NCBI GenBank assembly: GCA_009733575.1
Contig: ML769394.1
Location: forward strand, 248,001-312,000
Source of the DNA: Gymnopus androsaceus JB14
Lineage: Eukaryota > Basidiomycota > Agaricomycetes > Agaricales > Omphalotaceae
Length of the DNA stretch: 64,000 nucleotides
Reading direction: 5' to 3'
Numbering within the stretch: the stretch's first letter is position 1; every line of letters starts with the position of its first letter. Under the pieces are notes generated by a model, which searched no databases, had not been told where the DNA came from, and saw only the letters and a program-made list of their open reading frames with translations. This document shows, piece after piece, positions 23,661-56,665 of this stretch. A program made the position numbers and the translations under genes.

Positions 23661-23865
23661 TTCTGTCTGTCTAGTGGTATTGAGTTCAATGAAACTTCCT
23701 TGCTTCTAGTTCCAAGAAATAAACTTGATTGTAAATACTAATGTACGGTAATCTACAGTATGATACATGGTACAGAATCTGAGGAAAATATTTTACAGAT
23801 GGTTTGCGATTGAGGAAACCTGAGGAAATATGATACAGGTGACCGCGAAGTGGAGCTGGTAGAGT
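23661..23865. other. Left flank of the 20 kb element
   Basis: AT-rich DNA without genes. The three bases at 23863-23865 are AGT, repeated directly after the right end of the element. Confidence 0.5.
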
Positions 23866-24050
23866 CACACCGGAAACGGAAAAAATTCTTTACGCAAGAA
23901 TTTTCGACGGATTTTTTGCTTATCGTCCGTACTCTCACCATTGCTGATACCTTAGTTATCTCATGATACGAAATTCTCTAGTAAATCTAGTACGATTTTG
24001 TAAGATTCGTGAGTGAATTACACCCTGCTGAAAGATAGTAGGAGAACAAA
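23866..24050 (+). repeat. Left terminal inverted repeat of the 20 kb element
   Basis: It begins CACACCGG and contains its own small palindrome, AAAATTCTT-ACGC-AAGAATTTT. It pairs in inverted orientation with the stretch ending at 44035. Similarity is strongest in the outer 39 bases and falls off inward; the inner limit is approximate. Confidence 0.65.
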
Positions 24051-24375
24051 TATTTCGTTCAATGATAATTATTCGATGATATTCATTATCTTCTATCAAA
24101 AGATACAGTATGCAAAAACAGAGATACTTTATGATTCGATACTGTGAGTGATATTTCGACTATAAGCGTAGGAGATACCATGTCCGATAGCACAGGATTC
24201 TGCGGGGAGGAATGTGGTGAAGAAAGCTTGGTTGATATTCCAAGTTTCATGCTGATGGATATGCATGCATCGCGGATGCGATAAATTCTTGACGCATATG
24301 CGATGCGAAGAGCTGCGCATAGCTGTGTTAGCGACAAGTCCCACCACAGATGCCAATCACTAGTGTTGCGTCAGT

Positions 24376-26779
24376 TCATGAGCAGCGAACATTTATACTA
24401 CGACTCACAGTTTCATCCATAGAGTCCGAACCTTGATTGTACACACCGTTCTTCTCTAGCATAGAAAATGTAACATCTTTCTTTGCTTGAAGGAGTTCCA
24501 TGTCATACGGCGACAGGGACTTCAAATACCGGCAATGATATAGTGCAATCGGGAGTTTGCGCGCAACGGAATTGTGACTGCGTTCCTTACTCCGGCAATG
24601 AATCCTGCCCAAGGGAATGAGTCGTTGTTTTCCCTTAGAATGCACATTTCGTAGTTTCCGAGCAATGGTCTCCTCATCCAGCTCACGGAGAATTTGACCA
24701 ACAATGCGACGGCGATAGAATGGCTCATAGGTGACTAGTGCCAAGTCCGAGTCAGTGTGCTCCGATGACTGTCCATCTGTACCAAGTTTGATGAGAACTT
24801 CCTTTGCAAATTTCCATTTTGCGCGATCTGTTGTTGAAAGGCGCGGATTTTTGAGCAGTTCATTCACAGTATCAAGGCGCTCGCGATGTTTCTTCAAGCT
24901 AATAGATTAGCCTTGGGCTCAGAGATTGTCAAAATACATACTTTGAACTTTCGTTGGTTGACCTTGAGTTTTTCTGATCAAGCATTCTCTTGTGAGCGAG
25001 CACAATCATGGGATTCTTGGGCAGTTTCATAGCGTTCACCAGAAGCATGAACGCGCGGTTTATCAAGCTGCCAAGAGGCATGCGCTTGTTTCAGGTGATC
25101 CTGCAAGCAAATTTTGATCACCTCGGATGGGAGACAATCACCTGGAATGCGGAAAGTAGCTTGTTGATCAATGACCTGTGTCACCAGATTCGACACAACT
25201 TCTCGATTCCAGCGAGAGTTGCTCCAGCCTTGACCAAAGAAAAATTGGTGTTTGATTGCGCCCTCAGGGCCAGGCCCCTTGAACTCCTCATACGCCCGAG
25301 CTATTGCCGAGTCCACAGGGACATACTTCTGAAAATCATTGATTCTAGTCATACCAGTTGAGCTAATGAACACGCTGCGGATGAGTTTCTGCATGACAAT
25401 TAGCATCTGACAATGAAAAGAGGACCAAAACGCACCCTCCAATCTGATTCGAACTGATGATTTGCCAATGAGGAATCTTTGATCTCCTTATTGTAGGCTT
25501 GACTTCCAGGTCGAGGAATATTCTTGCGATGCGGGGCAGGAGTTGTAGGAGAAGTTGATGCAGCGGAAGTAAGCCCTTGTAGAACTTGGGTAACTATGCT
25601 ATCAACGAGGCTTTCGGACTGTTTTTGGCCAGGTGGGAATGAAGACAAGGGAGTTGATGAGGAGGCAGAAGAAGACGCAGGCAAGGGGGACGAGGAGGAT
25701 TGATTATTCTGGGACGACTGTTGCCGCATGCACTGTCGCAAGTCCTGTATCTCGGTTTCACGCTCGTTCTAGCAGGATATATTAGCTTCCTCTGGTTTGG
25801 GGAATTGAATTGATTTACCTTCTCTTGTTGAGCTTGGTTAAAATCCTTTGTCTAAGGCCAAGATGTGAGAAAAGTTATTTTCTCAATCTAGGGAACCTAC
25901 CAGCTGGGTAATGGTTTCGCTCTGCCTTGCAATTGTTGGAGCTGCCATCTTTATCTGATGGAGTGAGCTTGTGGTATACTCAATCAGATGTGCCATATAC
26001 GTACTTACTCTGCAAGCTTCACTGAGTTCGCTAACACATCTTCCTTCTCGGCTAAAGCTCTGTTCCTGTCAGAGGTGAGTCTTGCACAGTCTGATGCCTG
26101 AAAGACAGAATTAGTCTGTAATCCTGCAGACCAAGATTATAACTCACGAGTGTATGAATTCTGTCACTCTGGAGTTCAATGGTGACCTCAGCCTCTTCTA
26201 AACGTTCCATAGTCGAAGCAGCTTGGGCCTTGAGCTCTTCAAGCATGCGTACCACATCCTGCTGATTGTGTCAGAGAGTAAGAGGGAGTTTGATGGACAT
26301 ATATCATTGGGCTCATCCAAACGAGCGTTTATGCATTCTCTCAGTTGCTCGTTCTCCTGAAAGGCCGCAGCATACTGCGTGCGGAAAAACTGCAGTTCCT
26401 TCTCAGTAGCTAGATGCTTTTCTTGTTCCTGCGGACATGGAAATAGTCAGTGATGTTCAAAAAGAGTGTGGAGGCTAATCACTTCATCAAACTGGTGCTG
26501 CGCAGGACCAGATACTGCACGAAATTTATCTGGATGCGCGTACGGAGTACTTTCGTCATCATGTGGTCGATGTCCATTTCTATTGTATAGGACGAGTTGA
26601 GTTAATGGCTCCGAAGATACAGATGCCGCGTCCAATGGGGAATTGGAAGGCAGAGGGGCCGGGGAAGGCGAGGAGGATGAACCTGCATCTTGGGAAGATT
26701 GAGCTGGCCGTGTACCGTTAGTGAGTAGACGAGAAGGATAGGGCATATAGCGAAGACTTTTGGTGGAAGGATCAGTCAT
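24376..26779 (-). CDS. Coiled-coil, Ser/Pro-rich protein of unknown function
   Basis: I do not recognise this family. From the ATG at 26779 the first exon encodes a Ser/Pro/Ala-rich N-terminus (MTDPSTKSLRYMPYPSRLLT). Short exons rich in Glu, Gln and Leu follow (QEKHLATEKELQFF, VRMLEELKAQAASTMERLEE), predicting coiled coil, then another Ser/Pro stretch (SSSSPLPASSSASSS). The conserved-looking C-terminal half has WSNSRWNREVVSNLVTQVI, YEPFYRRRIVGQILRELDEE and LPIALYHCRYLKSLSPYDME. At least six short introns are needed. The last exon may splice at a GTGAGT near 24408 and continue past the stop I give, with DWHLWWDLSLTQLCAALRI. It lies just inside the left end of the 20 kb element, transcribed outward, so it could be a transposon accessory gene. 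Exact exons are not resolved. Confidence 0.5.
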
Positions 26780-27321
26780 CGTATAGTGTATGTTTCGTGT
26801 TTGTATGTTGAAAAGTAAAGACAGGGAATGTGAAGACAGGGAAAGTAAAGAAGGAAAAGTAGGGCGCCTGGCCTGATGGATGAGTTCATGTTGCTCAGGC
26901 ATTTTAAAAGCCGAGCCATACCATATGCGCAAGGCTGCGATGAGATTGCTGGATGATTCGCACAATAAGAATTGAACTTTGACAATAAGAATTTTGAAAT
27001 CTCACGTCATGTACATTTCTGCCATATGCGCAAGACTCTGGAAAGGAAGGAATTTAGCCAAACTCCAACAATAGTGAGTTGACATCTAACCTCAGGGACC
27101 ATGCGATTGAGGATGGCAGTCAGATAATGCGATCGTTCTTGTATTCATTAACCAGTCTCTTATTGTCATGATACTTTAGATGTACATAGATGGAAGTACA
27201 TTATGCCAACTGCAGGGGCGCTGCCAATCTTCATCTCCGAACGCTTTGAAAAGATGTAAGATGAGGTGCAAAACTAAAGAGTACTGTGTCAGTATTGAAG
27301 AATGAACATGAAGAAAACACT

Positions 27322-27758
27322 TCACAGCTTTGCAATGCGCCTTGCTTTTGGTGCATCGTTACTGCGGAGATTCACTACACAGTCAGTTGGTCCCTTGCTG
27401 ACTCTCATTATTAGAAGGTCTCCACGAAAGCCCAGTGTTGTATGTAACGCGAGTCTTTTGTGTCGTTGGAAGAAAATTCGAAACCGATTGCCTCTATACT
27501 GCACATCGCAATCATGAATATGCTGTTGGGTGAGCCAATCGGTGAAGCGAGGTTCTGGCAAGGGTAGACGAGATGCATGTAATAGATTCAATGGGCCTAG
27601 AGAAGTGGTGGCAATTGTCACACCAGTGGATGGCCCTTGCGCTGGGATTCGATACGCTCGTAGATTAAAGATATATTTGGACTGTGATGACGGTTAGTGA
27701 GCTGTTTGTAGTTAAGGTGAAGATTTACATTAGGTGAATTTGTTTGACTGGTAGGCAT
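27322..27758 (-). CDS. Small hypothetical protein
   Basis: Two exons are likely: a first coding MPTSQTNSPN from the ATG at 27758, then after an intron a second from about 27671 coding SKYIFNLRAYRIPAQGPSTG and ending ARRIAKL. The product of roughly 125 residues is basic, with no motif I know. It sits between two other minus-strand genes of the 20 kb element. Codon use looks like its neighbours. Confidence 0.4.
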
Positions 27759-28058
27759 TGTGAACGTTATGAATGTTGGACTAGAAAGTGACTAAAGAGT
27801 GGCTAGAGAGCAAGTGAATGGTAGCCTGCTACCAAAGTATTCAGTGAAAGGTATTCTCAATGCAAAGGATACAGATACGCACTATGTATATGTGAAGCGC
27901 AGGCTTAGCTGATTCGACCGTCAGATTGGATACGCACCCATCCTTTTGTTCTTTGGCCTTTTTCATTCCTTTTCCTTTTCACTCCACACGGTTATTTCTT
28001 ATCTCATCATTGTATTTTCACACTATGTACTACTTTATTGTTTCGTATTATTGTTTTA

Positions 28059-28781
28059 TTATGCAATGTGATTGGTTGTTGCCTTGCGCTTCTTACGAGC
28101 ATCGGTATCCTTCAGGTTCTTGAGTTGCTCGCGCAAAGCAGCGTTTGCACCCCAAAAGTCCAAGTGGTTTTTGAAGGCAGGAAACTGTTCAAATATCTGG
28201 GAGAAGGTTCAGAAAGGCGAACTGAGCAGCCACTTGTGGATGTACAATGTTACGAGCTGCTTGCAGAGCTTGTTCATCTTGCGCACTCAGTGGTTTGCCA
28301 AGCTCCAAGTGCGTCAAGACTGCGGATTTAGCAGTATTCTGCATGCAAACATTGAGATATGATATGTTAGGACATTGCAATCAAAACTTACTCTCAGGTC
28401 GCGAACAAGTTCTTTCTCCCAACCAGAATTAGTGAGTGTGAACCCGGAAGGGCAGGAAGTATACATTATACTCGAGGGACCAGGCGTGGTAGCTGGATGC
28501 ATTGGGCTGCCAATTGCATCATCTTCATCCTCGGGGCTGGGAGTTAGAGGAGATGGCGGGTTTTCAGACGGATCCGGAGCTCGCGCTTTTGTGTTAATCG
28601 GGGGAGGGATGGAACGCGCCCGGTAAGGATGGAACCTTGGGGTATCAGCTAGCTCCTGGTGGATAGCCAAGGGCACCGCACGAGTGGAGCGCTGGATATT
28701 GGTGAATATGAGCGGGATGACTTTCGGTTGTTTAGCCCTTCGAGGAGGTGCCCAGGTGGGGAGTGACTTTTTGGGAGGCAT
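28059..28781 (-). CDS. Small basic Pro-rich protein, unknown function
   Basis: The ATG at 28781 starts MPPKKSLPTWAPPRRAKQPK, followed by a Pro/Ser-rich acidic middle (ENPPSPLTPSPEDEDDAIG). A GTAAGT donor leads to a second exon, NTAKSAVLTHLELGKPLSAQ. A final segment, FWGANAALREQLKNLK then DARKKRKATTNHIA, can be joined by a 37-base intron (GTGGCTGC to CTCCCAG); without that intron the frame stops near 28188. The basic tail resembles a nuclear localisation signal. The start is about 130 bases from the divergent WD40 gene, so they may share a promoter. Confidence 0.45.
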
Positions 28782-28913
28782 TGGGATCCCCACCTCGTAC
28801 AGTCTGATGACCTTATATGTCAAATTGAATGACAATAAGAACATAAGTGTTATTGTAAACAAAAAGAACGGTCAGATTTAAAGGGAATCTAGTCTCACCC
28901 TGACTTGAGCCCA

Positions 28914-31900
28914 ATGCCAAATCGTACTTCTCCCTCCTGCGAAAGTGGACACTACGCACTGTCCCAGACTCTTGTTGGTCATGACGGGCCTACACTGTGC
29001 GTTGCAACTCATCCTCATGCCACCTACATTGCCACTGGTGGTGAGTTCACTTCCCACAATGATCTGTTGAAACTCACGATAGCTTTGTAGGGCGAAATGG
29101 TACAACAATTTGGGCAATGCCCCTTGGAGTACCTGTAGAGTCTCCGACAGGTCCGGGAGACCGCGGATTTACGACAGCAGTCGTATGGATGACCAGGCCC
29201 GATGATACTGAGGAAGGCATCGCATATGGCACAGACAAGGGTTATCTATACATTTGGAAGAGAGACAAACCTGAATTGAAAGTAAGTAATGCTCACAAGC
29301 TACCATGAGTCGTCAATAACTTACAGATTCTCAGTTTCATGAAGTTTTCTGCAGACGCTTGCAGGCAGACCCAGGGTGGGAAGAGATCTCGGCCTTAGCA
29401 TACGATACCAATTGCCACCAGTTGGCTGTCAGCCAGCGTTCGCAGATGGACCACAGATTTCTGATTGATGTGTCCATGCACCCCCACAAGATAAAATCGG
29501 TGAAGATCGAAGACCACTACCCTCAAGCTATAACGTTTGGCCATACCGGTGTGAAAGGAATTGAGATTTGGTCGTTTGGATGCGACGATGGAGATATGTA
29601 AGTGGTGATGATAAAACTGGTGATACACTAAATGAACTCGTTTGTGAAGTCACGTATTGAACAAGGAAGGACTTACTTTGGCAACGCACAGAACGGGCGT
29701 GGTAGCGTGAGTTCAGTGCAGTTCCTTGACAGTCAGATGCTCAATGGTAGCAGTGGAGACGCAGCCATTAACTTGAAGGACGACATCTTCATCCTGGACG
29801 ATGCGGCCCAGGGGATTGGCCTATACAAATTGAGTTCCTGCGAGCGTATGAAGACTTTTGAGGTGCCCATAAAGGTGGGCCGCCGGTCCCGAACAGTAGC
29901 TTTCCATGATCAAAGCACTGCAGTCATCAGTGGTAGTGATCATGGCCATGTACTGTGGCGGCGAAAATTAACCGAACACGCAAAATGTCACCTTGTAACG
30001 GCCATAGCGGGGTGAATAGCACATATTAGAATTTGTGTTCGGGGGCAATATTGTAGCCCTTTCGGATCCGCAGATGGTCCACTTTTCACGTTTGAGAAAT
30101 ATTTACAAATGGTAGAGTTATAGGCCAATATGTACAAAGCATCACATTTTATGATGTAATTTTTGTGAATTTTGACTCTAATGAGCTTTTTTCAATGTGT
30201 TCCTAAGCTTTTCTTGCGATTGTTTTTGTACAGGACTACTATTGGGACCATAAGGCTTTTATATCATGGCTTAAACCCAGAAGGAACATGCCATATTGAT
30301 GCATCAATTGAGGATGTTTATTTTTACCTGAAATTACAATAGCAGATGAATGAGGGCAAATCATGGGAAGGTTTAGTGGGTGATTCTATAGCATTTTGAG
30401 TCCTAAAGTGATCCCAATTCACAGAATTAAATAGTATAGGAAATTCATTGAATTATAGCTTAAGAAACTTCAAGTAGCAATTTTTCTGGGGTAATTTCAA
30501 ATTTAATGGCCTTAATTTGAATGTTTTTGAACCTTTTCTGCTGATGTTTTTTTCTGACCAGACTCTAGGGATGCATATAGTTCCATAATACATATTGGCC
30601 TCATCATACTAGTCTTGGTTCTGATCAAAAAGCCTCCACCATCCCAGAAATATGGCCCAACTAAGGACTAAGAATTTCTTCCCTCTTGTCTTCAGTACAT
30701 AGAGTGACTGTACCATCCAAAATGATTCATAGATATCCTCCAGCATCAAAGAACCCCATCACAGCCTCAATGCTTGAATTCAGACACCACAGGCTAAATA
30801 CAAGCTCACATTTTTATTTAGGGCAGATTTTCGAAAATAATTGTGGAAGATTTGTGTTTTTGGACATGGAAAATGGCCTCATTCATGGACCCAACTTGTG
30901 TTATGAAGGTATATGCATCCTTAGAGTGTGACCAGAAAAAAACATCAGCAGAAAAGGTTCAAAAACATTCAAATTAAGGCCATTAAATTTGAAATTACCC
31001 CAGAAAAATTGCTACTTGAAGTTTCTTAAGCTATAATTCAATGAATTTCCTATATTATTTAATTCTGTGAATTGGGATCACTTTAGGACTCAAAATGCTA
31101 TAGAATCACCCACTAAACCTTCCCATGATTTGCCCTCATTCATCTGCTATTGTAATTTCAGGTAAAAATAAACATCCTCAATTGATGTATCAATATGGCA
31201 TGTTCCTTCTGGGTTTAAGCCATAATATAAAAGCCTTATGGTCCCAATAGTAGTCCTGTACAAAAATAATCACAAGAAAAGCTTAGGAACACATTGAAAA
31301 AAGCTCATTAGAGTCAAAATTCACAAAAATTACATCATAAAATTTGATGCTTTGTACATATTGACCTATAACTCTACCATTTGTAAATATTTCTCAAACT
31401 TGAAAAGTGGACCATCTGCAGATTCGAAAGGGCTACAATATTGCCCCCAAACACAAATTCTAATATGTGCTATTCGCCCCGCTATGGCCGTTACAAGGTG
31501 ACATTTTGCGTGTTCGGTTAATTTTCGCCGCCACAGTATACGTTTTCGAACGTAGGTTGGGAACAGTGCGCGATACTCTGTATACGGGCCACAATGACTG
31601 GGTACAATCTGTAGCAGTGAGTTCAATTTAAACCTTCAGGAATACAAGTGGACTTACATTCATACAGACATTCGATAATGAGGGAAAAGCTAGTATCGTT
31701 GTTGGAAGATCAGGAGAGAATGTTGAAGGCAGTAACCCAATTCAAGTGTGGGTTAAGAAGGATCCGGTCTCGAGTGCTGTTCCTACGGCAAAGAGCAACA
31801 GGTTTGAAAAGCTCTGGATTGCGATTAGCGTTGTCTTGGCTGTACTTTTCGTGGTTGAGAATATTTTGGTGCGTGCCAGCTCTATCAGACTAAACCTTTG

Positions 31901-31966
31901 CTAACCATTCCTCGCTAGCATGTTCCAGTAGTGGCCTGGATGAAGAAAGCATTTATGAGTGTGTGA
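28914..31966 (+). pseudogene. WD40-repeat protein with C-terminal membrane anchor, split by an insertion
   Basis: Exons at 28914-29040 and from 29091 join in phase to give WD40-like blades (LVGHDGPTLCVATHPHATYI, GRNGTTIWAMP, GIAYGTDKGYLYIWKRD, ISALAYDTNCHQLAVS, VAFHDQSTAVISGSDHGH). The reading is interrupted at 29953-31536 by a palindromic element. Coding resumes with FERRLGTVRDTLYTGHNDWV, and the last exons encode IQVWVKKD and a hydrophobic segment, LWIAISVVLAVLFVVENIL, ending at 31966. The frame is restored exactly if the element and one TA are removed, so the gene was functional until the insertion. The family, a WD40 propeller on a single C-terminal membrane helix, is common in Agaricomycetes; its function is unknown to me. 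Confidence 0.7.
29953..31536. mobile_element. 1.58 kb palindromic (foldback) element, TA target duplication
   Basis: The ends are CTGTGGCGGCGAAAATTAAC and its exact inverse. The two arms, about 29953-30597 and 30893-31536, match nearly base for base, with only scattered substitutions, around a loop of about 295 bases. TA flanks both sides (29951-29952 and 31537-31538). No transposase is present, so this is non-autonomous; TA duplication suggests Tc1/mariner-type machinery. The high identity of the arms implies a young insertion or repair-driven arm homogenisation. Confidence 0.85.
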
Positions 31967-32423
31967 TAATGCTAGGAAGAAGCCAGGGCATCAGTATGCA
32001 CTGTATTTGTGCACGTTCAGCTTACCGATGACCGAGGACCTGCTCAAAGTCTGCCAGTAAGGTCTTAACTGTGTTGTCCTTTTGCGTCAAGATGTCTGTC
32101 CTTGCTGTTCGAATGTATCACTTACTTGTACAAACTTGTATGATCCTAATAGTCTTGATTTCCGTGGTTGCATGCGTGTATTCAAGTTTAGAGAGACATG
32201 CTGGCAGCGATGATGGACGTTGAGGAGAAAGAGCGAAAGTTGTTTGGTTGCCAAACAACGGTCCGATGGCCCTAGCCGCAACAGCGATTTTGACAGAAAA
32301 AGGAAATGCGTGCTAACCTACCGGCTACCGTGGATCCCGAATCCGCTACTGGCGTTTTTACACGTTGCCTCTTTCGCCGTCTTCCTTTCACAACTGCGCA
32401 TGCCTAGTTAGTAGTCTCCCACC
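31967..32423. promoter_or_regulatory. Spacer between WD40 and CRN-like genes
   Basis: No gene is seen. It contains the left copy of a ~100 bp inverted repeat (32202-32307). Just before the next gene is a short stretch rich in CACC and CCATGA. Confidence 0.4.
32202..32307 (+). repeat. Inverted repeat flanking the CRN-like gene, left copy
   Basis: About 103 bases (containing GATGATGGACGTTGAGGAGA and TTGGTTGCCAAACAACGGTC) recur in inverted orientation at 35511-35612 with roughly one mismatch per ten bases. Both copies contain a short open stretch reading ATGATGGACGTTGA, so they could be duplicated first-exon fragments rather than transposon ends. Confidence 0.75.
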
Positions 32424-35400
32424 ATGACTACTCGGCCCACTATGGATCGCTCCCTCACCATGGGGTCTCAGAGTTCTACCCTCACCATGGAGTCTCAGAG
32501 TTCTAGTTCAACCTGCTCCACGGTATGTACACACCACTCATATCCCACTCATTTGTATCTGAACTGATCTTGAAGGAACAAAAGCCCATCCTAGCGGGGG
32601 AACATGAGCTCATTAGTGGTCCAGCTCCGAAGGGGGTCTGGAGACTGCAAGGTCTTACGCCTATTGATCCCAAACTGCCTGATAAGCTTGCAGATTTGAC
32701 TCTGGCGTTCTTTTCTTCAGGAGGCCAGGATGTCGTGCTTGGGGCTTTGAAATGCTACAATTTCATGCTAAGAAAAGATGTTCTTTTCTTTTCAAAACCG
32801 GAGGAAAGGGGCCTACGGCTAGAAACTCAAACCTTTGCCTACAAAGTTTCAGATTCATTCCTCTTCCTTCACCCAAACTCGTATGACACGCTGTGCAAGG
32901 AGTATTATCTCGGCTGGTTCCATGTCAATGGCGGCTGCAGTTATTCTTCGCTCACCAATGTCGAATTATCCCCTACAAATTCTGGCTTTGATGTGACAAG
33001 GTTTCATTGCGAATGGGGCGACACCGATTACATTGACCTCTACTCCACAATGACGGCTCACGAGTGCCGACAATGGGTCAACGCTCACCAATCCTGTGAA
33101 CTGCAACTACGCTTCCGTCAATTCGACATGGAACAGAGTCTTAAATTCATGACCAGCGATTGTGAGACCTGTCGTGGCACGCACAGGGGGCTCTGCCCTT
33201 ATCAGAAACATTGTTCCCAGAGAAGGTCTTCTGCAGCCAAGAGGTTAAACGTTGAACTTGTTCGTGTTGGTCTGGTCGCTGAGATCATCTCACATGTAAG
33301 GCGTGATAGGTTCATCCTGGTGAGTAACATTGCTCACAAGGAGATAATGGGGAATTGACTATGAATAGATCAAGGCGCCGCCTTGTTCGGGCAAATCAAT
33401 GCTTCTTGACCAGATTTGGGAGGCTCTTCTGACGGAAGCACCGGAAGACCACCTCGAGAAACTTGGTGAATGTGGCGAGACATACAAGGGTACTGACCGG
33501 CAGCTATTCATGACGTTTCTCGCGAGTCTTTGCACACGGGCGGACCCTCGGCTTGGTGTCAACCGGCAGCTATTCATGACGTTTCTCGCGAGTCTTTGCA
33601 CACGGGCGGACCCTCGGCTTGGTGTCAATGTGGATGGCATTGACTTGGCGAACTTCATGAATATCAAGGGAAGGCGCCCTCTCTGGATCTGTTATGATGA
33701 AGTTCAAAGGACGTATGGAGATACCTCGCTCTGGGCAGCCCTCTACAGCGTTGCTACCAAAACCAACACGTTTGTGATTGCTGCTGGTAGCTTCGGTAGT
33801 CATACCGGGTCCACCAGCCATTCCCCTCTGCATATGGTCCCACCGGAGCATCGCATGACTCTTTTCAACCAGGAGGATGAACGGCTCAGCCTCGCTTTCA
33901 CCCAGAATGATATTGAAGAGTATAAGAGATGCTTGAATGCACCTGAGCTAGGTCCATACTGGATGAATCTACTGGATGAATCAGATCTTGCTTCACCCTG
34001 TGTCTTAAACATAGAATGGGACGCAGGTGCGCATCCTGGAGTGTTCACGCAAATGGCCAGATACTTTGTTCAGCGGGTGCGTTGTTTTGTCTGTGCGAGA
34101 CCAAATCTAACTAGCGATCAATAGATTAAACGGGCACGTTGTTTTTTTAATCTTATACAACCTGTTTTTTAATCTAGGTTAAACAGATTAAACAGCAAAG
34201 CCAAAGCACTACAGCCATTCCATTCAAACAATTGGTTGAGGATTTCACCTCTCAGTGCCTCTTTGAAGCAAGCATGGAGATAACCGCTGATTTGGGCCGA
34301 TGCATACCACGTCCGCCCTCCCATTGTCACAACTTCCCTCCCCCAGCACTGCTGGTTTTCCATACTATTCTGGAACAAGGAAAGATAGTGGTCCCCACCA
34401 TCGATACGAAGCATTCACCATTGATTGTTAGCAATGACTGCAGAATCTGGGATCAGGTTTCCAGTTCTCTTCGTATCGTGTACCAGAATGTTCCCGCTGA
34501 ATATCGCACTCCACACGTCCGACAGCCCGATACTTCTACCTATATAACTCTTGCCCATGGTATGATCGAGACAGTGGCAATTGCCGTGACTCCTCGCTTG
34601 CGCTTTCTGGAGGTGGTGCCAGGTAACCCCGGTTACAAGTTATACGCACTTCGTGAAAAACACGCTTCGGATCATGTTCTCTCTGACTTTGCCCAAGCTG
34701 CCCATGATGCGTGACGAATGGGCTGGCTTTTGCAGGTCCCGTCTGTGGCAGGAGCTACTTCGATTACATTGGTACACCCTACGCATTGGCATAAATACTA
34801 CACGGAACACCTATTCAGTCGGACGCAGACTTTCGAGACTTTCAGTTCTATCGATGACTTGTTGTACCGTGCGCTTGCCAACTTCTCAACCAGAGTCTTG
34901 ATGGAATATTCCCATGACCAGGGAAATGTGCGCAAGTCTGTCTATGCACATGAGTTTTCCCGTGTTGTTCATGATCTCGCGGGTCCTGGATATGCCAAAC
35001 AAGAATGTGTCACAAGTACCCGCGATGGCTTTGTTGACGTGCAAATCGATGTCCAAGCGCTGGCTCTTCGAGTTTCTGGTGGAAGGCAACAATTCCAGCG
35101 AGCACGTTGAACGGTTTTTGACCAATGGAGTGTATAATAACTCGTGGCCAAACTACGAGTGGCGGGTTGTAGATTTCCGTATGCGTAAGAATCCACAGCA
35201 TGTTCTAAGTAAGCATACTTTGTTTTTCCTTGATCTCTACTCATTAATCTCTCACAGCTCGCAGAAACTGCCCAAGCTATCGTACTGTTAAATTTGATGT
35301 CCGACATTGTCATGAAGATCGACCCGTTATCATGGAGGCCACCGTGAAATGGCAAGAGGGCGAAGTAACCGAGACGCGTTCCATTGTTTTGCGCGACTAG
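32424..35400 (+). CDS. Crinkler (CRN)-like P-loop NTPase, possibly frameshifted
   Basis: CRN-type proteins are NTPases, many with a C-terminal nuclease-like domain, and are greatly expanded in Agaricomycetes. A short Ser/Thr-rich first exon from 32424 is followed by a long exon with QGLTPIDPKLPDKLADLTLA. An intron near 33300-33370 leads to the Walker A motif IKAPPCSGKS, and Walker B-like PLWICYDEVQ follows. Later parts include HLFSRTQTFETFSSIDDLL and a C-terminal FEFLVEGNNSSEHVERFL and WRVVDFRMRKNP, ending at 35400. A block of 22 residues (RQLFMTFLASLCTRADPRLG and two more) is encoded twice in tandem at about 33499-33628. Around 34705-34790 the homologous reading passes through all three frames, which suggests a frameshift or an unusual intron. 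It may therefore be inactive. Confidence 0.65.
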
Positions 35401-35510
35401 CTTGACATGAATCATATTTACTTTTTTCACTGTTTTCACTGTTGTACTATTATATTTATACGTTACTAGTATTTATGACATACACGCGATTAATTACTAT
35501 TCTGCCGAGT

Positions 35511-35612
35511 TTCCTTTTTTGGTCGAAATCGCTGCTGCGGCTGGGGCCATCGGACCGTTGTTTGGCAACCAATCAACTTCCGCTCTTTCTCGTCAACGTC
35601 CATCATTGCCAG
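35511..35612 (-). repeat. Inverted repeat flanking the CRN-like gene, right copy
   Basis: This is the inverse partner of 32202-32307. Together they bracket the CRN-like gene with about 3.2 kb between them. Confidence 0.75.
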
Positions 35613-35809
35613 GTAAGTTCTCACTACAGTACAATACAACGTAAAAAAGCATTGCCGGAACATAACGAGAGCGAAACGACTGAACTGAGACTTGGAGAAA
35701 CTGGGACGACGACATTTAGTTGTCTCTCGTTCAGCCTCGTTCTCGCCTTAAATAAGTCTTAGTATAACAAGTAAGCTAACATTGTCATAGTCCTGCCCAC
35801 AGACGTGCA

Positions 35810-38800
35810 ATGAACAATCAGGTATCTTCGTTATATACTCGGATGGGTCTCGAATGCAACTGAACGACACCACAGTTCATCGATCTTGAAGCTCAGGTCG
35901 ATACTGACGATGAATTCTCTAGTGACGACGAGAACGGAGATCGAGACGGTGTGTTTGCCCCACTACTGCTCATCTCACTTTGAATACAGCTCTTCTTTAG
36001 ATTTTCTTGATGACGCTGAGGAAGTTGAATCACTTTTGCCAAAACCGAAATCCTTTGTTCTCCCTGAACAGCGGCCAAGAGCAGATGCATTGTTCCAACA
36101 CATTGAAATGAAGTACTTGACCAACTCTGCGGATTCAGAGTGCCTACCGAACACCTTGCTACTCGGAGATGATCATCCTCTCGTCGTTCATGTCCTTCAC
36201 TCGTCTCAGACCAACAACTGGCCAACTTGGAGCTTGAAATGTCGGGTATGTATTTGCACTATCAGTATTATGCATGTGCGCAAGTAATCGTTTTTGCAAA
36301 GGATCCTTACCCGGTGCTATATGAATTACAGCGGTGCCACGAGAGACTGAAGCCTCAGCTTTGGTCTGCCTACATGAACCCTGGCTCTCCTGGGTACATC
36401 TACCTGGAAGCCCTATTTCTTCATCACTACAAACCCGACCCACTGAGGACAGCGTTGGGTCAATTCTCGAGTATCCGCATGGCGACTCTGACGCGTGTAC
36501 CCCGAACGAGCTTCGCAAAACACTCACTGTGCCACAGTCCTCCTGTACCATCAACTTCATTCCCGGGCAGTGGGTACAGAGTGAAATGAGGGTTATACCG
36601 AGGAGATGTTGGCTGTGTATCAAGGGCTGAGGACGAGTCGCTCTCAAGACCAGGTGTCACGGTACTCCTAGTGCCGCGTCTTGTATACCCCCTACAGGTT
36701 ATTGACACACCAGATGAGGCCCTGCGCTCGAAAGCTCCATCGAAGCGCAAACGGGAGACTCGCCCTCCTTTGGCACTTCTTGAACCATCAAAATGTCGAA
36801 ATCATCTACAACGAATCAGTTCCACGGACTTTCGATATCAGAATTGGGACTTCTCTGGTGGCCTCATACTTAAACTTTTCAGCAAGCAGACACTTGTCGC
36901 CGCCCAGGAGATACCGTCAGAAATTGCCAGTCTGTTTCAAACAGTCCAAGAACAGCATGATGGCCTGGTCAACTTGGCCACTATGCCTCTTCCCGCCTTT
37001 TGGGACTTCCAGGAGGGAGAAAGAGTCTTGATCATTGCCTCAAATTCCGAGAGAAAGGCAGGAACAGTGCAAACCGCACCGCAGTGGCAGCGCGCTGCAG
37101 TCGGGCTTGTCCAAGTCTGTGAAATCAACGTAGCAGAGCTTGGGTTTCAGTCCATTCGAACTCGCAATATCTTGAAGGACATCTCCATTGGGGATTTTGT
37201 AGAAGTTGTTGCAGGGCAACATCAAGGCGAATCTGGTTTCATTGCAGCTAAGAATGACGGACATCTTGGTATCTGCAAGGGAACAAAGGGGAGAGGAATC
37301 GTGAGTTGTTGGTTTTTTGCACAATCGGTAACTGAGTTTATCACAGGATTTCTTAGTACACGCGAACTCTACCAGACTTGCTACGCCAAAGTTTCAGCGC
37401 ATCAACAAGCCATGGATCGGTGCTGAAGTCGTCGTAGTCTCAGGACCTTTTTCTGGAACCAGCGCAACGGTTCAAGATGTCACCATAGACGCTCGGCGTC
37501 GTCTCCGTCTTACAGTCCAAGCGATCTGCACGGGAAAAAATGTCGAGTTAGGTTATTTCGACGTGCAAGAGCGTTGGTATGTAGAGACTCTGTGTTGATC
37601 TCGATCTATCTGTATCTAACACGCCTTCAAAAGGACAAGACACAATTTGATGGACTTTTTGCCTCTCAAGCCATCTCAGCAGGAGTTTAATATTGAGTTT
37701 CCCTGGCGAGATGTCCAAGTCAGAATCGTTGTTGGGACTTTTGCAGATCAACTTGGCATCGTAAAGAATGTTTGGCGCGACTTCAGAGGTTTCCTTTGAC
37801 TGTTGATCTACATAACCAACCAGTTCTGCTCCATTGAACTGGATCACTGCTGTGTAGTGGAATGCAGGTACGTATACTCTGATTGACTCGAGTGGAAAGT
37901 GCCCTATTCACTATCATATAGCTCAGGTCGGACTTTGCTCGAATATCAACCCTTAGAAGGTATACAAGCACAGCTCTACGGGCTCAGTCCTTCGCTTTCT
38001 GCAATGCAAACAGGTCCAATGCCCTGGATTGGCTTCGAAGTCGATATCATTCGGGGACATTTTAAAGGTCAATCGGGAGTGGTCCGGCAGGTTGACCGTT
38101 ACCATCCGAAGCACAATGGTTCAACGCCCATTCACAGCGGTATTCTGTTGACCGTCGAATCATTTCTCATACACGCCGGGTGTGAGGTTCGACATTATAA
38201 GGTTGACTACCATGATGTTCGCTATGCGAAGTAAGTGCGTGCTGTGCAAAGAAGAGCAAGTTGTTAACACTTGATACAGAACCAGTTTCCGTCTTTGCGA
38301 TGTCTACCTTCCCACAACGTCGCAGTGTTTTTACCTACCTGATAACATGGACGCAGTTGACCCACTACCGTCAGCTCGTTCTTCGAGCAATGAAGAGCTC
38401 GGTAATAAAACGCCTTGTTACAATGACTCAGAAAGAGAGGTATTCTTTGGGGAGTACGATCCCTGGGACCCAAGCAGTAAGACTCCAACTGCCTCCACTC
38501 TGACAGAATATGACTCTGCTTTCAAACTGGTGGAGTCACCTATCACTCAGCCACCAAAGCATTGGATCCTACATCCCAAGCTGCTCGGAATCCCAATGCT
38601 GGTTGATATATGTGGTGGAGACTACGACACCTTGAAGAAGAAGAGTGGGCTTTTTGTTGAGACCGCCAAAAGTCTCGACACGATCTCGGTGATCGCCAAA
38701 GTGTCAAGGTCTGCATCGACATCCATCCCTGCTCAATTTGTCTGTTTGCATCGCAAACGACCCAATCCCTCTAGTGAAAACGGTCTGATGGTGATTGCTT

Positions 38801-39120
38801 GTGGACAGGAAAACTTGATAGGCAAGTATGTGCGGCGCGTACATCATTATTACGAAGATACCCGTTTGGAAGCCAACCACAAACTCATTTGTGTCGAAAT
38901 GGATCACTCAGAACCGGGCTGGGAACTAATAGCAAAAACTTCGGAATCCGGGAGCCTGTTTTTGTACATCCATCCTGATGACCTTGAAATGAGCAAAGAT
39001 ACTGCTGAACAACGAAAGGCAGTGAAGGAGAGTTTACAGCCTATTCGAGACTCGCACCAGCACGATGGAGTCAATGTGATATCCAAGGACGCAATTCAAA
39101 GGTTGACCACATCAGATTAG
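35810..39120 (+). CDS. Spt5-like protein with NGN-like and KOW domains
   Basis: Spt5 binds RNA polymerase II and promotes elongation. The start MNNQ joins across an intron to an acidic N-terminus (FIDLEAQVDTDDEFSSDDEN), as in Spt5. An NGN-like part follows (LWSAYMNPGSPGYIYLEALF), then several KOW-type segments: SIGDFVEVVAGQHQGESGFI, WIGAEVVVVSGPFSGTSATV, DVQVRIVVGTFADQLGIVKN and WIGFEVDIIRGHFKGQSGVV. The C-terminus has no recognisable heptad repeat and ends RLTTSD. Many short introns are required and not all joins are resolved. The sequence is divergent and lies inside a putative transposon, so it is more likely a cargo or dispersed paralogue than the essential Spt5. Whether it is intact is unclear near 36590-36700. 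Confidence 0.6.
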
Positions 39121-39681
39121 CTACATGACCATACTAGTTATTGTCTTTTTTTTTTGTATCTCAAAATGTAAATAACAATTGTACCAGTGCAGCAGTCGAC
39201 ACACCCAATAAAAGTGTAACAATTAAAGACAGCTCGAACCCACAAAACAATAAGAACATGCATGAACACGTCCGTAATGAGCCTTTTTAGGGGTCCTTCG
39301 TTCACCTATTTATTCCGGCAACCACACTCGTCCCAAGTGCCTCTCCCAATACTCGCAATATCTATGCTTCCTTCAGTTCTTCGCGCTGCTGGTACCTACT
39401 TGCAGACTGCCACAACAAAAATACATGTAAGTTCTTTAATCCGCTTACGCGCCATCTACTCATGAATTTTGTTCACTAGTCTGCCAGCAATTCAACCTCC
39501 CCAAGTCCACTTAGTGAGGTGAGCACTTGTGGTACATAATGTCTGTTATATACTAAGAGAAGCTTTAAAGGATGACCCGTACATCCCTGGCTCATTCTCC
39601 TCACATGCGTGTATGTCCCCGCAGGTATTCGCATAGGTGTTTTCATTGAATGAACTCCATTTGCTGACGCGTTAAAAACAG
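39121..39681. other. Spacer, possibly 5' exons of the transposase gene
   Basis: Short open stretches with splice signals (for example GTAAGT at about 39427, CAG near 39682) may be small 5' exons. I cannot assign them with confidence. Confidence 0.35.
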
Positions 39682-42600
39682 GTGTCACAAGTCACACAGT
39701 CGCTCAATAACCTAAACCTGGACATGGAAGAAGAAGTCGTACATCTCCTTGCTGAGCTTGACTTGGACAGGCTTCCCGATGTTAAGCACGATGAGGCTAC
39801 ATCGGAGCAGGTATGTAACCTGCACGATTCTGCAGTACAAGATACTCACTGGCTCCAGGATCATCAACATCATCAACTCAAGACCTACCTTACAGCAGCA
39901 ACTCTTGTACCCAAGCCCTCCAACATGCGCCATCAAGATGCTCTTTTCCTTCCATCGGAGGACATTTACGAAGCTTCCGCCCAACAAATGCCTGATGCGT
40001 TAAGGCCGCTTGCGGCTACTGATGCCGTCAGTAGCATGCAGAGTGTCTTGTCTCAAGCTTTACATTCCAAGGCTTTTCGCCCTAGTCCTAGATTTGGGCG
40101 TATGCCTCCACCAAGATCGGTTGTCGAGAAAATGCCGTCATCCACGTCAATTACAGCACCTTCTTCAGCCTCTTCCATCCAGAAGAAGATTAGAAAAGTT
40201 CATGCCAGTGAACTTACCATTCTTCGGAAGCTTTCAGAGAAAGCTGAATCCAATCGTCAATGCCTTTCGGGTGATTTTGAAAATCTTGCATCCAGCGCTC
40301 AGCGAGATGTGCTCGACAAAATCTCGAAGTTTGTCAATGACGCATCCTCCGCCTTACAAAAACTCGAAACTCGCTCGAAAGAACGCAAGCGGAAATCAAT
40401 GCGTTGAGCTGCTGGTGATCAGGATCAGATGGAAGAGATTGAGATTAGAGACGAACAGCAGAAGCTGGGGAGACGGCTACTCAACCTCGACACACTGACG
40501 TCGATGTTATATTCTCCTCTACTTGATGATATGCCGGAGTATGTCGATGCTGGTGAGTCCCCCTCTCCAAAGGTGGCCAAGATGCATCTAATTCTTCTGG
40601 TAGAGTATGCATACAGCTACCCCCTGGACCACTACGAAGGCATCCATCAAGTGCTGATTGCATTCGCCATCATATGTCATCTCGTTATGGGCCTGTCTCG
40701 TATCCACTCTGAGTTCATTCTGGGAACAGCAGCACTCTTAGTGCGGCTCGCTTTCTGCTATGGGGCCCCTGAAGGATCAAACAGTACCCCCGAGCTCTCC
40801 GCTTCGCACACTGAGCTTCTAGCAGGAATGCCTCATTCATTACATGAAGCGCTCCGCGACTTCAAGATCGATGGCAAGTACGAGCTCCATGCGACCTGTC
40901 CAGCGTGTATGGCTACATACCCAGCCACATTGCTCCGTAGTACGCAATCTCCCGTCTTTCCCGATGAGTGCAGTAACAATATCGTCGGGAAGACCGGTCG
41001 CATTCAATGCGGGACCGGTCTGTTACGAGCTAGAAGTGGCGGAGCACTCCAGCCAATCAAACCATATCTTGTCGGATCCTTGCCCGACTACCTTGCTCGT
41101 GTCCTTGCGGATCCAGTATACCTGGCCCAGTCAAATGATGCAGCTGCGGATGCATGGTCGAGAATCCGTTCAGGCTCTCAGCATCACTCTTCCTCCAATG
41201 TTTTCGAAGCCGATTTCCTTCGGGACTTTCGAGGACCAGATGGCAAGCTTTTCGTTGACCACGGTGACAAAGTGCGCCTTGCGTTCGCTTTACACATGGA
41301 CTTCTTCAACCCAAACGGTATACATGCTCGAGGAAATCACCACTCTGTTGGTGTCATCTCTGCTGCTAATCTCGCACTCATCACGGACAATCGTTATCTG
41401 CCAGAATCCATGTTCATCGGTGGCATCATTCCTGGGCCCAAGGAACCTGATTTCGAGCAGTGTGACCACTTCCTTTGCCCAATCATTGAGCAGTTCCGAA
41501 GGACATGGAGTCCTGGTGTACAGTTATCGCGCACAGCAGATTCAGACTCAAACGTTCTCGTTGAAGCTGCCATCATTCTTTCCGTCAATGATCTCCCTGC
41601 AGCACGAAAGCTTGCCGGACTACAAGGTCATAGCTCCGGTTTGTACATCTGCAGTGTATGTGACTTGCAGGGAAAGAACTCTATTATGGACACCAATCAC
41701 TCTCGCTGGTCTTGTCGCAATGTGCAGCGAATGCGTGATGCTGCATATGCTTGGAGAACAGCAGACACTTTAGCCCAGCGGAAGAAGATCTTCAAGGAGC
41801 ATGGTGTGCGCTGGTCGTCAATGTGGCTATTACCATATTGGGATCCAACTCGCATGCTTGTTGTAGACAGCATGCATTGCATCCTCGAAGGGATCGTACA
41901 CTATCATTGTAGGCACGTTCTTCATCTCGATGATGCGGCATCCAACAAAATCAGTGCGGATGGCTTTCGACATGCGTACAACTGGCCTTGGGAAGCCTAT
42001 CATCCTGATAATGTTCCCAGTGCTTACGCGGTACCCGAGAAACACATTGTTCGCGTCGGTAAAATTCATGAACTTCTCTGCCTTGCACTCGAAGGCCCAA
42101 AATCTCTGAATCTATTGGGTTTGTGGAATTGACTGGACAGAATCAGTACTCTTGCTTCCCTCCCTTATGTTGCCTTCACGCTTGACCTGGTACCGTGCCA
42201 GCTGCATGTTAGCCCTCAAGTAGCAGCACCGTTCTACGCCGAGCGTGAACTTGCCCGACACTCAGAACATGGCCACGTAGAGCTTCCAATTGGTAAGGAG
42301 GTGACCCGCAAAAGCCACTTGATTGCTTTGCTCCTGCCAGTGGACTGGGTGAGTTTGCAGTATTCTCTAATCATTATTCAGATTTTGATGCTACATACCA
42401 GCGACTCAATCGCGAGTTGGCTTCAACAGCTCAAACACTCCCTACCAACACACCCGAAACGATGCAACATATTCGCACCGTCATCTGCAACACCAAGCGA
42501 CCATCATGGGTTAATTCTGTCCCTCTCAATTACGGCCTCAACAGTGCTGGAACAATAAAAGCGGATGAATGGTGTACACTTAGTACTATCTTTATTCCTA

Positions 42601-43537
42601 TTGCTCTTGTCACACTCTGGGGGGACAATGATGGTGTCGCCCCACCCAGCAATGACTCGGATGAGGGCTTGTTGTTTCAGGCGCTTCAGCATTCTATGGC
42701 GCTTTTCCAAGCCACTCTGATTGCTTGTCGCTACACAATGACAAGTGATTGCATTCAAGCATATCGCACACATCTCACAAAGTGGATTCAAGAACTGAGG
42801 CCTCTCTTTCCTCACACTCAAGAGAGTCCTCCTCGAGTAAACATTCACATGGCTAATCATATCTACGACTTTCTCAAGCTTTTTGGCCCCGTCATTTCCT
42901 GGTGGTGTTTTCCTTTTGAACGCCTCATTGGTGCATTACAAAAAGTCAATACCAATGACCACATTGGCGGTGAGTTTGGCAGTCAAGATTAAACAACGCT
43001 CTAATCATGTGTGTAGGACCTTTGGAGAGTACGATCATGAAATCGCAACTTCGCGTTGCTAACATTCGTCGTTGGCTCCGTCGAATAGACTGTCCTGAGG
43101 CACTCAAACAGCTGAAGATTCTTTTCGACAAATGCTTTGTACCTACAGAGTCGCCTGAGGAGCATTTCAAGCCTGGCTCACATCGTTCCTATGTCAAGCA
43201 CAATGGCGCTGTGTTCTCCCCTTATCTCACCCATGAAGGTAACGCCACAATCGTCTACCGACCAAACCCGAACGAGAACCCCATAGCTGGTCGTATCGAA
43301 CAAATTGACAATATCGTTACACTAAATGGCACCCACACGCGCCTCCTGGTTCGTGCTCATCTACCTCTTCCCAAGGCTTCATATGATCCTTTCGGAATCT
43401 TCCCCGATTTCCCAGCGAGGACATACTCCACTCACATGAAGGATTCCCTTGACGTTGTTGACCTCAACGATGTTGTCGCTCATGCTGCGCGTTTTGACTT
43501 TTCACACAATCGTTCTGTCTTTCTGAACTTGTCATGA
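39682..43537 (+). pseudogene. CACTA-type (Tnp2/EnSpm-like) transposase, two in-frame stops
   Basis: The N-terminal part is acidic, then Ser-rich and basic (SKERKRKSMR), and meets TGA at 40405-40407. The same frame continues with the catalytic region: a zinc-binding part (CPACMATYP), then FALHMDFFNPNG, ARGNHHSVGVISAANLAL, FIGGIIPGPKEPDFEQCDHF, LSVNDLPAARKLAGLQGHSS, YICSVCDL, VRWSSMWLLPYWDPTRMLVV and DSMHCILEGIVHYHCR. These blocks typify basidiomycete Tnp2 transposases of the CACTA superfamily. A second TGA (42130-42132) is again in frame with open sequence after it. An intron near 42350 leads to SWWCFPFERLIGALQKVNTN, and after another intron comes RVANIRRWLRR, ending at 43537. Two stops in continuous frames mean this copy is inactive. 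Confidence 0.85.
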
Positions 43538-43850
43538 GCATAATGGTGTGTAACCCCTTCTTGCTGCAATTACATGTCTACTGACCCTGCGTCAACAGAG
43601 AGATTGCATATGCGTCAGGAACTTAACGCATCCGCGGTATATAGCTCAGCATGAAACTTGGACTATCGGCCAAACCTTTTTCATCGCATTCCTCTGTGCA
43701 GAAACCTGCACTATCGAACAATGTTTCTCGTCCGCTTATTTTCAATATATCACTTTCAGTGTCGTAACACAAGAAACTCCCGGTTTCGCATACCATATAT
43801 TTTCATAAGAGATTTTGAATATTGTTGAATAAATATCATAGAATGAGACA
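43538..43850. other. Spacer between transposase and right terminal repeat
   Basis: No gene is seen; AT content rises towards the element end. Confidence 0.4.
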
Positions 43851-44035
43851 TATTTTTTCCTACCATCTTTAGGCAGGGTTGAATTCATCCGTGAAATTCA
43901 CAATATCGCACAAGATTTACAATAAAGTTTACTATCTCAAGATAATCGATGTATCCACAATGCTGAGAGTTCAGATGATATATGAAAATTCCCTTCAAAA
44001 TTCTTGCGTGAAGAATTTTTTCCATTTCCGGTGTG
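43851..44035 (-). repeat. Right terminal inverted repeat of the 20 kb element
   Basis: The inverse of this stretch begins CACACCGG and pairs with 23866 onwards. AGT follows directly at 44036-44038. The inner limit is approximate. Confidence 0.65.
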
Positions 44036-44326
44036 AGTGGAGCTAAACACGTCATTTTATTGTTGGAATATTGATCTGCTCCAGGCAACCGCACTCGCTT
44101 TTACCCGATTAGATTCCATACATTTTGCTTTGACATATTTGATTTACCCATTTTAGATATAAGTAGATTATTATTGTACCGGGAACCCTTGCGCGTTTGC
44201 AACGGTTCCCTACCTATCCAAATTCAACCTCCCTTTTTTGTCCCATCTCACGGTCTAATTCAACATTTATTTGGATGTAAACAAGAACATAGTACTTAGT
44301 TGTACAGAAAATGTCTAATAAATCCT
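44036..44326. other. Right flank of the 20 kb element
   Basis: AT-rich, no gene seen. GTGGAGCT at 44037-44044 also occurs at 23850-23857, just outside the left end but seven bases further out. Confidence 0.4.
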
Positions 44327-56000: not shown

Positions 56001-56080
56001 GGGCCAGAAGTGCAACCCAGTGTTGTAGGTTGGATAGCTGGAGCAAGATTCTGGAGCTTATACATAATAAATACATTACT

Positions 56081-56395: not shown

Positions 56396-56665
56396 AATCA
56401 CACAGGAAAGGGAAAAAATTTGGTAGACCTTATTTTGCAATTGAAAGATGCACATGACTCTGGATAAGCCATGTATAGGTGTGGGAATAATCACATGATA
56501 GCGGATATCCCATTTGTGAATTATTGCAATAATTCAGGTGGCAATTCGGTAGACCTTAATTTTTTCCCTTTCAGGTGTGAATGGAAGTGCCTGCAGGTGG
56601 CAATGATGTGTACATGTGTTATATGTATATATATACCCATAATCATCTTGCTCTCAACCTTGACC

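What the first reader, a model, noticed from the sequence alone, without database searches (positions are those of the whole stretch)
23866..44035. Candidate 20 kb CACTA-like transposon carrying a WD40-membrane, a CRN-like and an Spt5-like gene
Inverted ends (CACACCGG, 37 of 39 outer bases identical, then ~140 gap-free weaker positions) are flanked by a direct AGT, and a Tnp2-type transposase ends about 500 bases inside the right end. CACTA elements normally have CAC-type ends and 3 bp duplications. Here they would enclose six further genes, including a transcription-elongation-factor relative and an NTPase family linked in the literature to transposon-derived effectors. A cargo-bearing giant element of this kind in a mushroom would be notable.
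Basis: partly seen in the sequence, partly recalled or inferred. Interest (0 to 1): 0.85.

Follow-up and report, generated by a model that had tools for sequence, protein, structure and literature searches.

The report
Giant mushroom transposon with conserved genes
A 20-kilobase stretch of a mushroom genome is one jumping gene that carries, besides its transposase, five other genes including a relative of a general transcription factor, and much of the same gene set recurs in the same order at many other places in that genome, so the extra genes look like working parts and not random passengers.

Summary
Confirmed and extended. Window 23866-44035 is one 20,170-bp CACTA/EnSpm-type transposon: terminal inverted repeats (TIRs) of about 440 bp, CAC..GTG ends, AGT duplication. 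A paralogous empty site on contig C543 has a single AGT. Two more two-ended copies share its genes: 19,847 bp (duplication TTG) and 25,081 bp (no matching duplication). Eleven further contigs hold ends only. Protein matches place the genome as Gymnopus androsaceus JB14.

Gene set: A(-), g3(-), WD40-membrane(+), CRN-like(+), Spt5-like(+), tnp2 transposase(+). Three or more of these six occur together in 25 of 115 clusters (window included), 20 of them outside contigs of this TIR family. Geometry is nearly invariant (Spt5-tnp2 12 of 12, A-Spt5 13 of 13, g3-WD40 15 of 15); only the CRN-like gene often changes strand or place. Non-CRN genes have dN/dS 0.10-0.40 against the C226 copy. They look like an old, selected core.

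The window copy is damaged: a 1.6-kb foldback interrupts the WD40 gene, the CRN-like gene has a stop, and the Spt5-like frame is probably broken. Functions are inferred. Whether the 20 clusters lie inside TIRs was not tested. Ten searches of open-access papers listed no description of this gene set.

The parts
23863..23865 (.). left copy of the 3-bp target-site duplication (AGT)
   Evidence: single AGT at the paralogous empty site on C543
23866..24304 (+). left terminal inverted repeat, about 440 bp, CACACCGG end
24376..26780 (-). gene A, conserved multi-exon gene of unknown fold; candidate TnpA-like accessory protein (approximate limits)
   Evidence: one exon gives 50 matches in own genome; dN/dS 0.13-0.29 vs C226; frames; no Pfam hit for the two exons scanned
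28185..28782 (-). gene g3, small conserved gene, divergent to the WD40 gene (approximate limits)
   Evidence: 22 matches; g3-WD40 divergent in 15 of 15 pairs; frames
28900..31895 (+). WD40 gene with C-terminal hydrophobic stretch (membrane anchor inferred), interrupted in this copy
   Evidence: WD40 identity from the uninterrupted C148 copy
29951..31538 (.). 1.58-kb foldback insertion, 648-nt arms 97% complementary, TA at both edges, inside the WD40 gene
   Evidence: absent from the C148 and C226 copies
32500..35400 (+). CRN-like gene: P-loop NTPase exon (33369-34076) and REase-like C-terminus; in-frame stop in this copy
   Evidence: family label recalled, not matched in a library
35811..39119 (+). 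Spt5-like gene: acidic N-terminus, weak NGN-like piece and several KOW motifs; frame probably broken in this copy
39676..43537 (+). tnp2-type (Transposase_21) DDE transposase gene
   Evidence: dN/dS 0.16-0.26 vs C226
43603..44035 (-). right terminal inverted repeat
44036..44038 (.). right copy of the target-site duplication (AGT)

Best explanation
One 20.2-kb cut-and-paste DNA transposon of the EnSpm/CACTA kind whose accessory genes are an old core. SHOWN: paired TIRs of about 440 bp, 3-bp target duplication, single-AGT empty site, Tnp2 transposase, other copies with the same genes, and a conserved gene order across distant clusters. INFERRED: the D-D-E transposase binds the TIRs, excises the element and inserts it with a 3-bp stagger. 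Gene A is the most likely end-binding partner (the TnpA role). The Spt5-like protein is most likely an element-dedicated elongation factor that helps RNA polymerase II transcribe long, silencing-prone element genes, an analogy with bacterial NusG paralogues such as RfaH and LoaP (recalled). The CRN-like NTPase-nuclease is a shuffling module, probably a nuclease helper or an anti-competitor function. The WD40-membrane protein is an adaptor of unknown target. The window copy is damaged and probably not autonomous. The confidence given is for the shown part and the core reading; for the inferred protein functions it is about 0.3.
For: Paralogous empty site on C543: the joined flanks align across the junction with one AGT; 688 bp of left flank at 93% and 24 of 26 bases from the AGT rightwards. 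C226 copy: 19,847 bp with TTG on both sides. C148 copy (25,081 bp) aligns with most of the window element in the same order at 74-93% (one 125-bp piece inverted); C226 in blocks, 65-79% for the long ones (protein level). Three or more of six genes in 25 of 115 clusters, 20 outside family contigs; Spt5-tnp2 12 of 12 same strand, A-Spt5 13 of 13, g3-WD40 15 of 15, A-g3 16 of 16. Spt5 loci within 30 kb of tnp2 loci 9 of 21 outside family contigs, expected at most about 4.5% if placed at random. dN/dS vs C226: A 0.13-0.29, g3 0.37, WD40 0.10-0.40, Spt5 C-terminal part 0.13 (dS saturated), transposase 0.16-0.26. CAC..GTG ends plus 3-bp TSD match fungal EnSpm in PMC12730594 (passages).
Against: The empty site is a paralogous repeat copy; its right-flank homology ends after about 26 bp, and nothing beyond exceeds shuffles apart from one 24-bp match displaced by some 200 bp. 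The C148 copy has no matching 3-bp duplication and one end begins AACACC. No empty site was found for C226. Eleven contigs hold ends without a found partner. 77 of 115 clusters hold only one of the six gene types, and all six occur together in only 3, the window included. Clusters are not all independent: C294 and C727, and C120 and C229, give identical Spt5 scores. The random-placement control ignores that repeats crowd together. C226 lacks most of the Spt5-like gene, and its g3, two WD40 exons and one tnp exon align across a stop. No accessory function was tested; both structure models were unusable.
Confidence: 0.88

Rival explanations
1. Two separate insertions, or an inverted pair of TIR-like repeats, happen to bracket ordinary host genes.
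For: Many unpaired ends exist in the genome; homology of C434 and C396 to the window element stops 2.4 and 5.2 kb from the left end in the stretches fetched.
Against: Single-AGT empty site; second two-ended copy with its own TSD; interior shared in order between copies; same gene order at unrelated loci. The C434 copy is probably interrupted and not short: a g3 match resumes about 21 kb further on.
Confidence: 0.02
2. The five non-transposase genes are recent passengers captured from the host by one family and neutral to the element.
For: Spt5 and WD40 domains are common host domains; C226 lacks most of the Spt5-like gene.
Against: The same genes in the same order in 20 clusters outside family contigs, mostly at 26-66% aa identity; dN/dS 0.10-0.40 for non-CRN genes vs C226.
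Confidence: 0.06
3. The element belongs to Plavaka, not to EnSpm/CACTA proper.
For: Plavaka and fungal EnSpm transposases are related and share motifs (PMC12730594, passages), and that paper reconstructs Plavaka families from various Agaricomycotina.
Against: Termini are CACACCGG, not TGT..ACA or CATCA..TGATG as given for PlavakaA and PlavakaB; Pfam assigns Transposase_21, though whether Plavaka would hit it too was not tested.
Confidence: 0.15
4. The CRN-like gene is itself a semi-independent mobile or swapped module that uses the giant element as a vehicle.
For: CRN-tnp2 orientation 5 same, 5 opposite; CRN-Spt5 8 same, 3 opposite; CRN lies outside the usual slot in C120 and C64; identity to C226 32-38% in the four exons aligned against 76% for the main tnp2 ORF.
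Against: dS of CRN exons is also high (1.6-2.2), and the Spt5 C-terminal part is likewise old (dS 2.9), so exchange of a larger block between element families explains much of it; no ends of a CRN module were looked for or seen.
Confidence: 0.3

Closest known systems
Fungal EnSpm/CACTA families (Kojima 2025, PMC12730594; outline and passages read)
   Same: CAC..GTG ends, 3-bp TSDs, transposase with C(2)C and H(3-4)H motifs; some such families carry an accessory TET/JBP gene
   Different: Here six genes, with no TET/JBP hit in the ORFs scanned; the words Crinkler and WD40 and Spt5 do not occur in that paper's held text
Enlarged En/Spm of the red alga Chondrus crispus, 16-20 kb with 4-5 ORFs (cited in PMC6431247, passage read)
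   Same: Oversized CACTA-type element with several ORFs
   Different: Different kingdom; identity of those ORFs not seen, so homology of the gene set is untested
SmTRC1 and TRC elements (PMC1636069, passages read)
   Same: Transposase_21 transposase, TIRs, second protein proposed to do the TNPA job
   Different: CCC ends and 2-bp repeats in animals; no Spt5, WD40 or CRN-like genes in the passages read
Plavaka A/B (PMC12730594, passages)
   Same: Related CMCT-clade transposase in Agaricomycetes
   Different: TGT..ACA or CATCA..TGATG ends, 2-3 bp TSDs
Starship giant fungal elements (search listing; passages of PMC13066641)
   Same: Large multi-gene mobile elements of fungi
   Different: Tyrosine-recombinase captain; here a DDE-type transposase and TIRs
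CR (Crinkler-RHS) proteins with NTPase + REase (PMC5289972, passages read)
   Same: Proposed link between such proteins and transposons; NTPase plus nuclease-like C-terminus
   Different: Here the gene sits inside a defined TIR element; membership not shown by any library match

Membership tests
EnSpm/CACTA | 5'-CAC..GTG-3' termini within TIRs | tested here: met
   CACACCGG..CCGGTGTG, TIR about 440 bp
EnSpm/CACTA | 3-bp target-site duplication | tested here: met
   AGT (window) and TTG (C226); the C148 copy does not show one: 2 of 3 two-ended copies
EnSpm/CACTA | Transposase_21 (Tnp2) transposase | tested here: met
   PF02992 E 6e-11 above cutoff
EnSpm/CACTA | C(2)C and H(3-4)H between second D and E | tested here: met
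   CSVC at 41650, HMANH at 42846, FERL at 42915; the same patterns also occur elsewhere in the ORFs (one further C(2)C, three further H(3-4)H), and which D is the second catalytic one is assigned from recall
EnSpm/CACTA | subterminal short repeats bound by TnpA | tested here: inconclusive
   no exact 8-mer repeat beyond shuffles in the 600-bp ends; degenerate motifs not tested; the feature itself is recalled
EnSpm/CACTA | transposase falls in the EnSpm clade in a tree | not tested
   no reference EnSpm or Plavaka set held
Plavaka | TGT..ACA or CATCA..TGATG termini | tested here: not met
   ends are CACACCGG; family features from PMC12730594
Spt5 family | several Spt5-type KOW domains in order | tested here: met
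   PDB Spt5 colinear over residues 3-240; in P0125 KOW 3e-9 above cutoff, KOW4_SPT5 6e-6 just below cutoff
Spt5 family | NGN domain before the KOW domains | tested here: inconclusive
   Spt5-NGN only E 0.13, below cutoff, on ORF 36173-36586
Crinkler/CR proteins | P-loop NTPase with REase-superfamily C-terminus | tested here: inconclusive
   Walker A PPCSGKS and a DE Walker B seen; REase resemblance recalled; no meaningful Pfam or PDB hit; fold unusable
WD40 repeat proteins | WD40 repeats | tested here: met
   C148 copy: PDB hits among WD-repeat proteins, best 3.4e-8; Pfam WD40 0.0013, below cutoff
Starship | tyrosine-recombinase captain gene | not tested
   not searched for directly; the element has a Transposase_21 transposase

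The most novel reading that the evidence does not exclude
A whole superfamily of giant mushroom CACTA elements that encodes its own Spt5-type elongation factor as a working part, used to transcribe or un-silence its long genes, with a CRN-type NTPase-nuclease module that lives and recombines inside the transposons. The elements would then be a native habitat of CRN proteins and a eukaryotic counterpart to NusG paralogues on bacterial mobile DNA.
Probability: 0.3. Interest if true: 0.86.

Novelty: new variant of a known kind. Interest (0 to 1): 0.7.

Why it matters
CACTA elements usually carry one or two ORFs (PMC6431247, passage). Here a six-gene set keeps its order across loci whose transposases are 44-56% identical to this one where both occur in a cluster, so the accessory genes are probably needed by the element. 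An element-owned Spt5 would be a new way for a transposon to act on RNA polymerase II. CRN-like genes inside bounded transposons make the literature's 'transposons to toxins' idea directly testable: CRN trees can be compared with transposase trees.

Tried and rejected
Two separate insertions: rejected by the empty site and by copies with the same interior. Recent passenger capture: unlikely. An empty site for the C226 copy was sought with joined flanks and not found. Structures of a gene A exon and of the NTPase exon gave mean pLDDT 46 and 36, so no fold search was made. The viral-contig scan found no relative. Pfam gave nothing for the gene A and g3 exons scanned and nothing meaningful for the CRN exons. 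Subterminal repeats: none beyond chance for exact 8-mers. Papers: ten searches of an open-access library; no title or abstract start in their listings describes this gene set in a CACTA element. Zhang et al. 2016, the source for CR proteins, is not held.

Dropped rows: merged neighbouring matches on one strand, so gene counts there are lower than the raw match counts. Clusters of fewer than three gene types (90 of 115) were not listed. One search listed 120 of 356 proteins.
Full report
WHAT IS THERE. Window 23866-44035 (20,170 bp) is bounded by inverted ends CACACCGG..CCGGTGTG. The outer 37 of 39 bases agree. The inverted repeat runs for about 440 bp: 398 nt at 74% plus 34 nt at 88%. AGT lies on both sides. 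The left TIR finds 18 places in the 83.3-Mb genome, the right TIR 18 places, and the 25-bp end 16 places with 0 in the reversed control. The genome is probably Gymnopus androsaceus JB14: P0012 and P0126 bear that name and lie on contigs whose lengths (171,385 and 575,152) equal those of C146 and C12.

IT IS ONE MOBILE ELEMENT. A search with the left flank found contig C543. There the two flanks of the window element, joined in a script, align with one AGT instead of two. The left flank matches over 688 bp at 93%; from the AGT rightwards 24 of 26 bases match and then homology stops, with nothing beyond above shuffles except a 24-bp match displaced by some 200 bp. The flank looks like the end of another repeat (Tc1/mariner-like by a recalled motif), so this is a paralogous empty site and not an allele. 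A second two-ended copy on C226 (19,847 bp) has TTG on both sides; no empty site for it was found. A third on C148 (25,081 bp) lacks a matching duplication, and one end begins AACACC. Eleven more contigs hold single or interrupted ends: C791, C98, C396, C434, C286, C52, C146, C481, C136, C638 and C45. In the stretches fetched, homology of C434 and C396 to the window element stops 2.4 and 5.2 kb from the left end. On C434 a g3 match about 21 kb further on suggests that this copy is interrupted and not short; for C396 it is open.

GENES. Left to right: A(-), g3(-), WD40-membrane(+), CRN-like(+), Spt5-like(+), tnp2(+). The transposase scores 6e-11 with Transposase_21 and carries CSVC, HMANH and FERL. 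The Spt5-like ORF matches 13 PDB sequences, all Spt5, best E 4e-6 over residues 3-240. Its close relative P0125 has KOW at 3e-9 and Spt5 KOW4 at 6e-6, the latter just below cutoff; the NGN match is weak (0.13). The WD40 call rests on the uninterrupted C148 copy (best PDB hit 3.4e-8; Pfam below cutoff). The CRN label rests on a Walker A and B pair and on recalled C-terminal resemblance; no library confirmed it.

THE WINDOW COPY IS DAMAGED. A 1.58-kb foldback with TA at both edges (29951-31538) sits in the WD40 gene and is absent from the C148 and C226 copies. The CRN-like gene has an in-frame stop where both other copies read on. The Spt5-like stretch is open for 278 codons here but for 537 in C98, so the frame is probably broken here. 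C148 is degenerate in the first half of its CRN-like gene. C226 may be damaged too: its g3, two WD40 exons and one tnp exon align across a stop, unless these are introns.

THE GENES ARE A CORE, NOT PASSENGERS. Searches with one exon of each gene gave 50 (A), 32 (CRN), 30 (Spt5), 77 (tnp2), 32 (WD40) and 22 (g3) matches. Merged and clustered with gaps up to 20 kb they form 115 clusters. 25 hold three or more of the six gene types, 20 of them outside contigs of this TIR family; 13 hold two types and 77 only one. All six occur in three clusters: the window, C584 in the same order and strands, and C120 with CRN between A and g3. Most matches outside the family lie at 26-66% amino-acid identity. 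Clusters are not all independent: C294 and C727, and C120 and C229, give identical Spt5 scores. Nearest neighbours within 25 kb: A-g3 16 of 16 in one geometry, g3-WD40 15 of 15, A-Spt5 13 of 13, Spt5-tnp2 12 of 12, WD40-Spt5 13 of 14, A-WD40 18 of 20, A-tnp2 9 of 12. CRN is the exception: CRN-tnp2 5 same strand and 5 opposite, CRN-Spt5 8 and 3. Outside family contigs 9 of 21 Spt5 loci lie within 30 kb of a tnp2 locus where at most about 4.5% is expected at random; that control ignores the crowding of repeats, so the fixed geometry is the stronger evidence.

SELECTION. Window against C226, dN/dS by a Nei-Gojobori count in a script: A 0.13-0.29, g3 0.37, WD40 0.10-0.40, transposase 0.16-0.26, Spt5 C-terminal part 0.13 (dS 2.9, saturated), CRN exons 0.36-0.37 with dS 1.6-2.2 (first exon saturated). 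Against C148, which is closer and partly decayed, values run from 0.20 to 0.88. The CRN and Spt5 C-terminal parts are older splits than the rest, so the middle of the element has probably been exchanged between element families.

MECHANISM. Shown: TIRs, TSD, empty site, transposase, repeated gene set. Inferred: cut-and-paste movement by the DDE transposase; gene A as TnpA-like partner, by its place and its constancy; Spt5-like protein as an element-dedicated elongation factor; CRN-like module as a helper nuclease or a weapon against other elements. The analogy with RfaH and LoaP is recalled.

COMPARISON. Ends and TSD match fungal EnSpm as described in PMC12730594 and not PlavakaA or B (passages). 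That paper reports accessory TET/JBP genes in such families; the words Crinkler, WD40 and Spt5 do not occur in its held text. The review PMC6431247 mentions 16-20 kb En/Spm with 4-5 ORFs in a red alga (passage). PMC5289972 reviews the link between CRN proteins and transposons (passages). Ten paper searches listed no description of this gene set, in an open-access library that lacks most subscription papers.

LIMITS. No transposase tree with reference families was possible. Structures failed.

Noticed in passing
window 29951-31538: Foldback insertion with 648-nt arms (97% complementary), TA at both edges, nested in the WD40 gene; absent from the C148 and C226 copies
   Followed up: partly
window 59856-62192 (-): A second Transposase_21-like transposase: ORF 60639-62192 has Pfam E 2.3e-5 (below cutoff), neighbour ORF 59856-60638 no hit; from a different element
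   Followed up: partly
window 512-3280 and 3275-4207: About 20 tandem 135-bp units (TPR-like by recall) followed by an ORF without a Pfam hit
   Followed up: no
window 19919-21962 (-): ORFs with a FIDEAH motif just left of the element, NTPase-like by recall, no Pfam hit
   Followed up: no
window 56080-56398: 99-bp tandem repeat array, 3.3 copies
   Followed up: no
window 11575-12843: Arylesterase-like ORF (Pfam E 5.5e-6)
   Followed up: no
window 27322-27693 (-): 123-aa ORF inside the element with no tblastn match in the C148 or C226 copies; its DNA lies within the stretch shared with C396
   Followed up: no
L008/L014 (C52), L007/L015 (C286), L018/L035 (C146), L017 (C638): TIRs of this family are themselves split by later insertions of about 17.5 kb, 0.35 kb and 18.4 kb; the C146 end shares its flank with C638
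   Followed up: no
C226 copy (L051): The C226 element also holds a fragment of another related transposase (about 49% aa identity over 187 residues), a possible nested or mosaic piece
   Followed up: no
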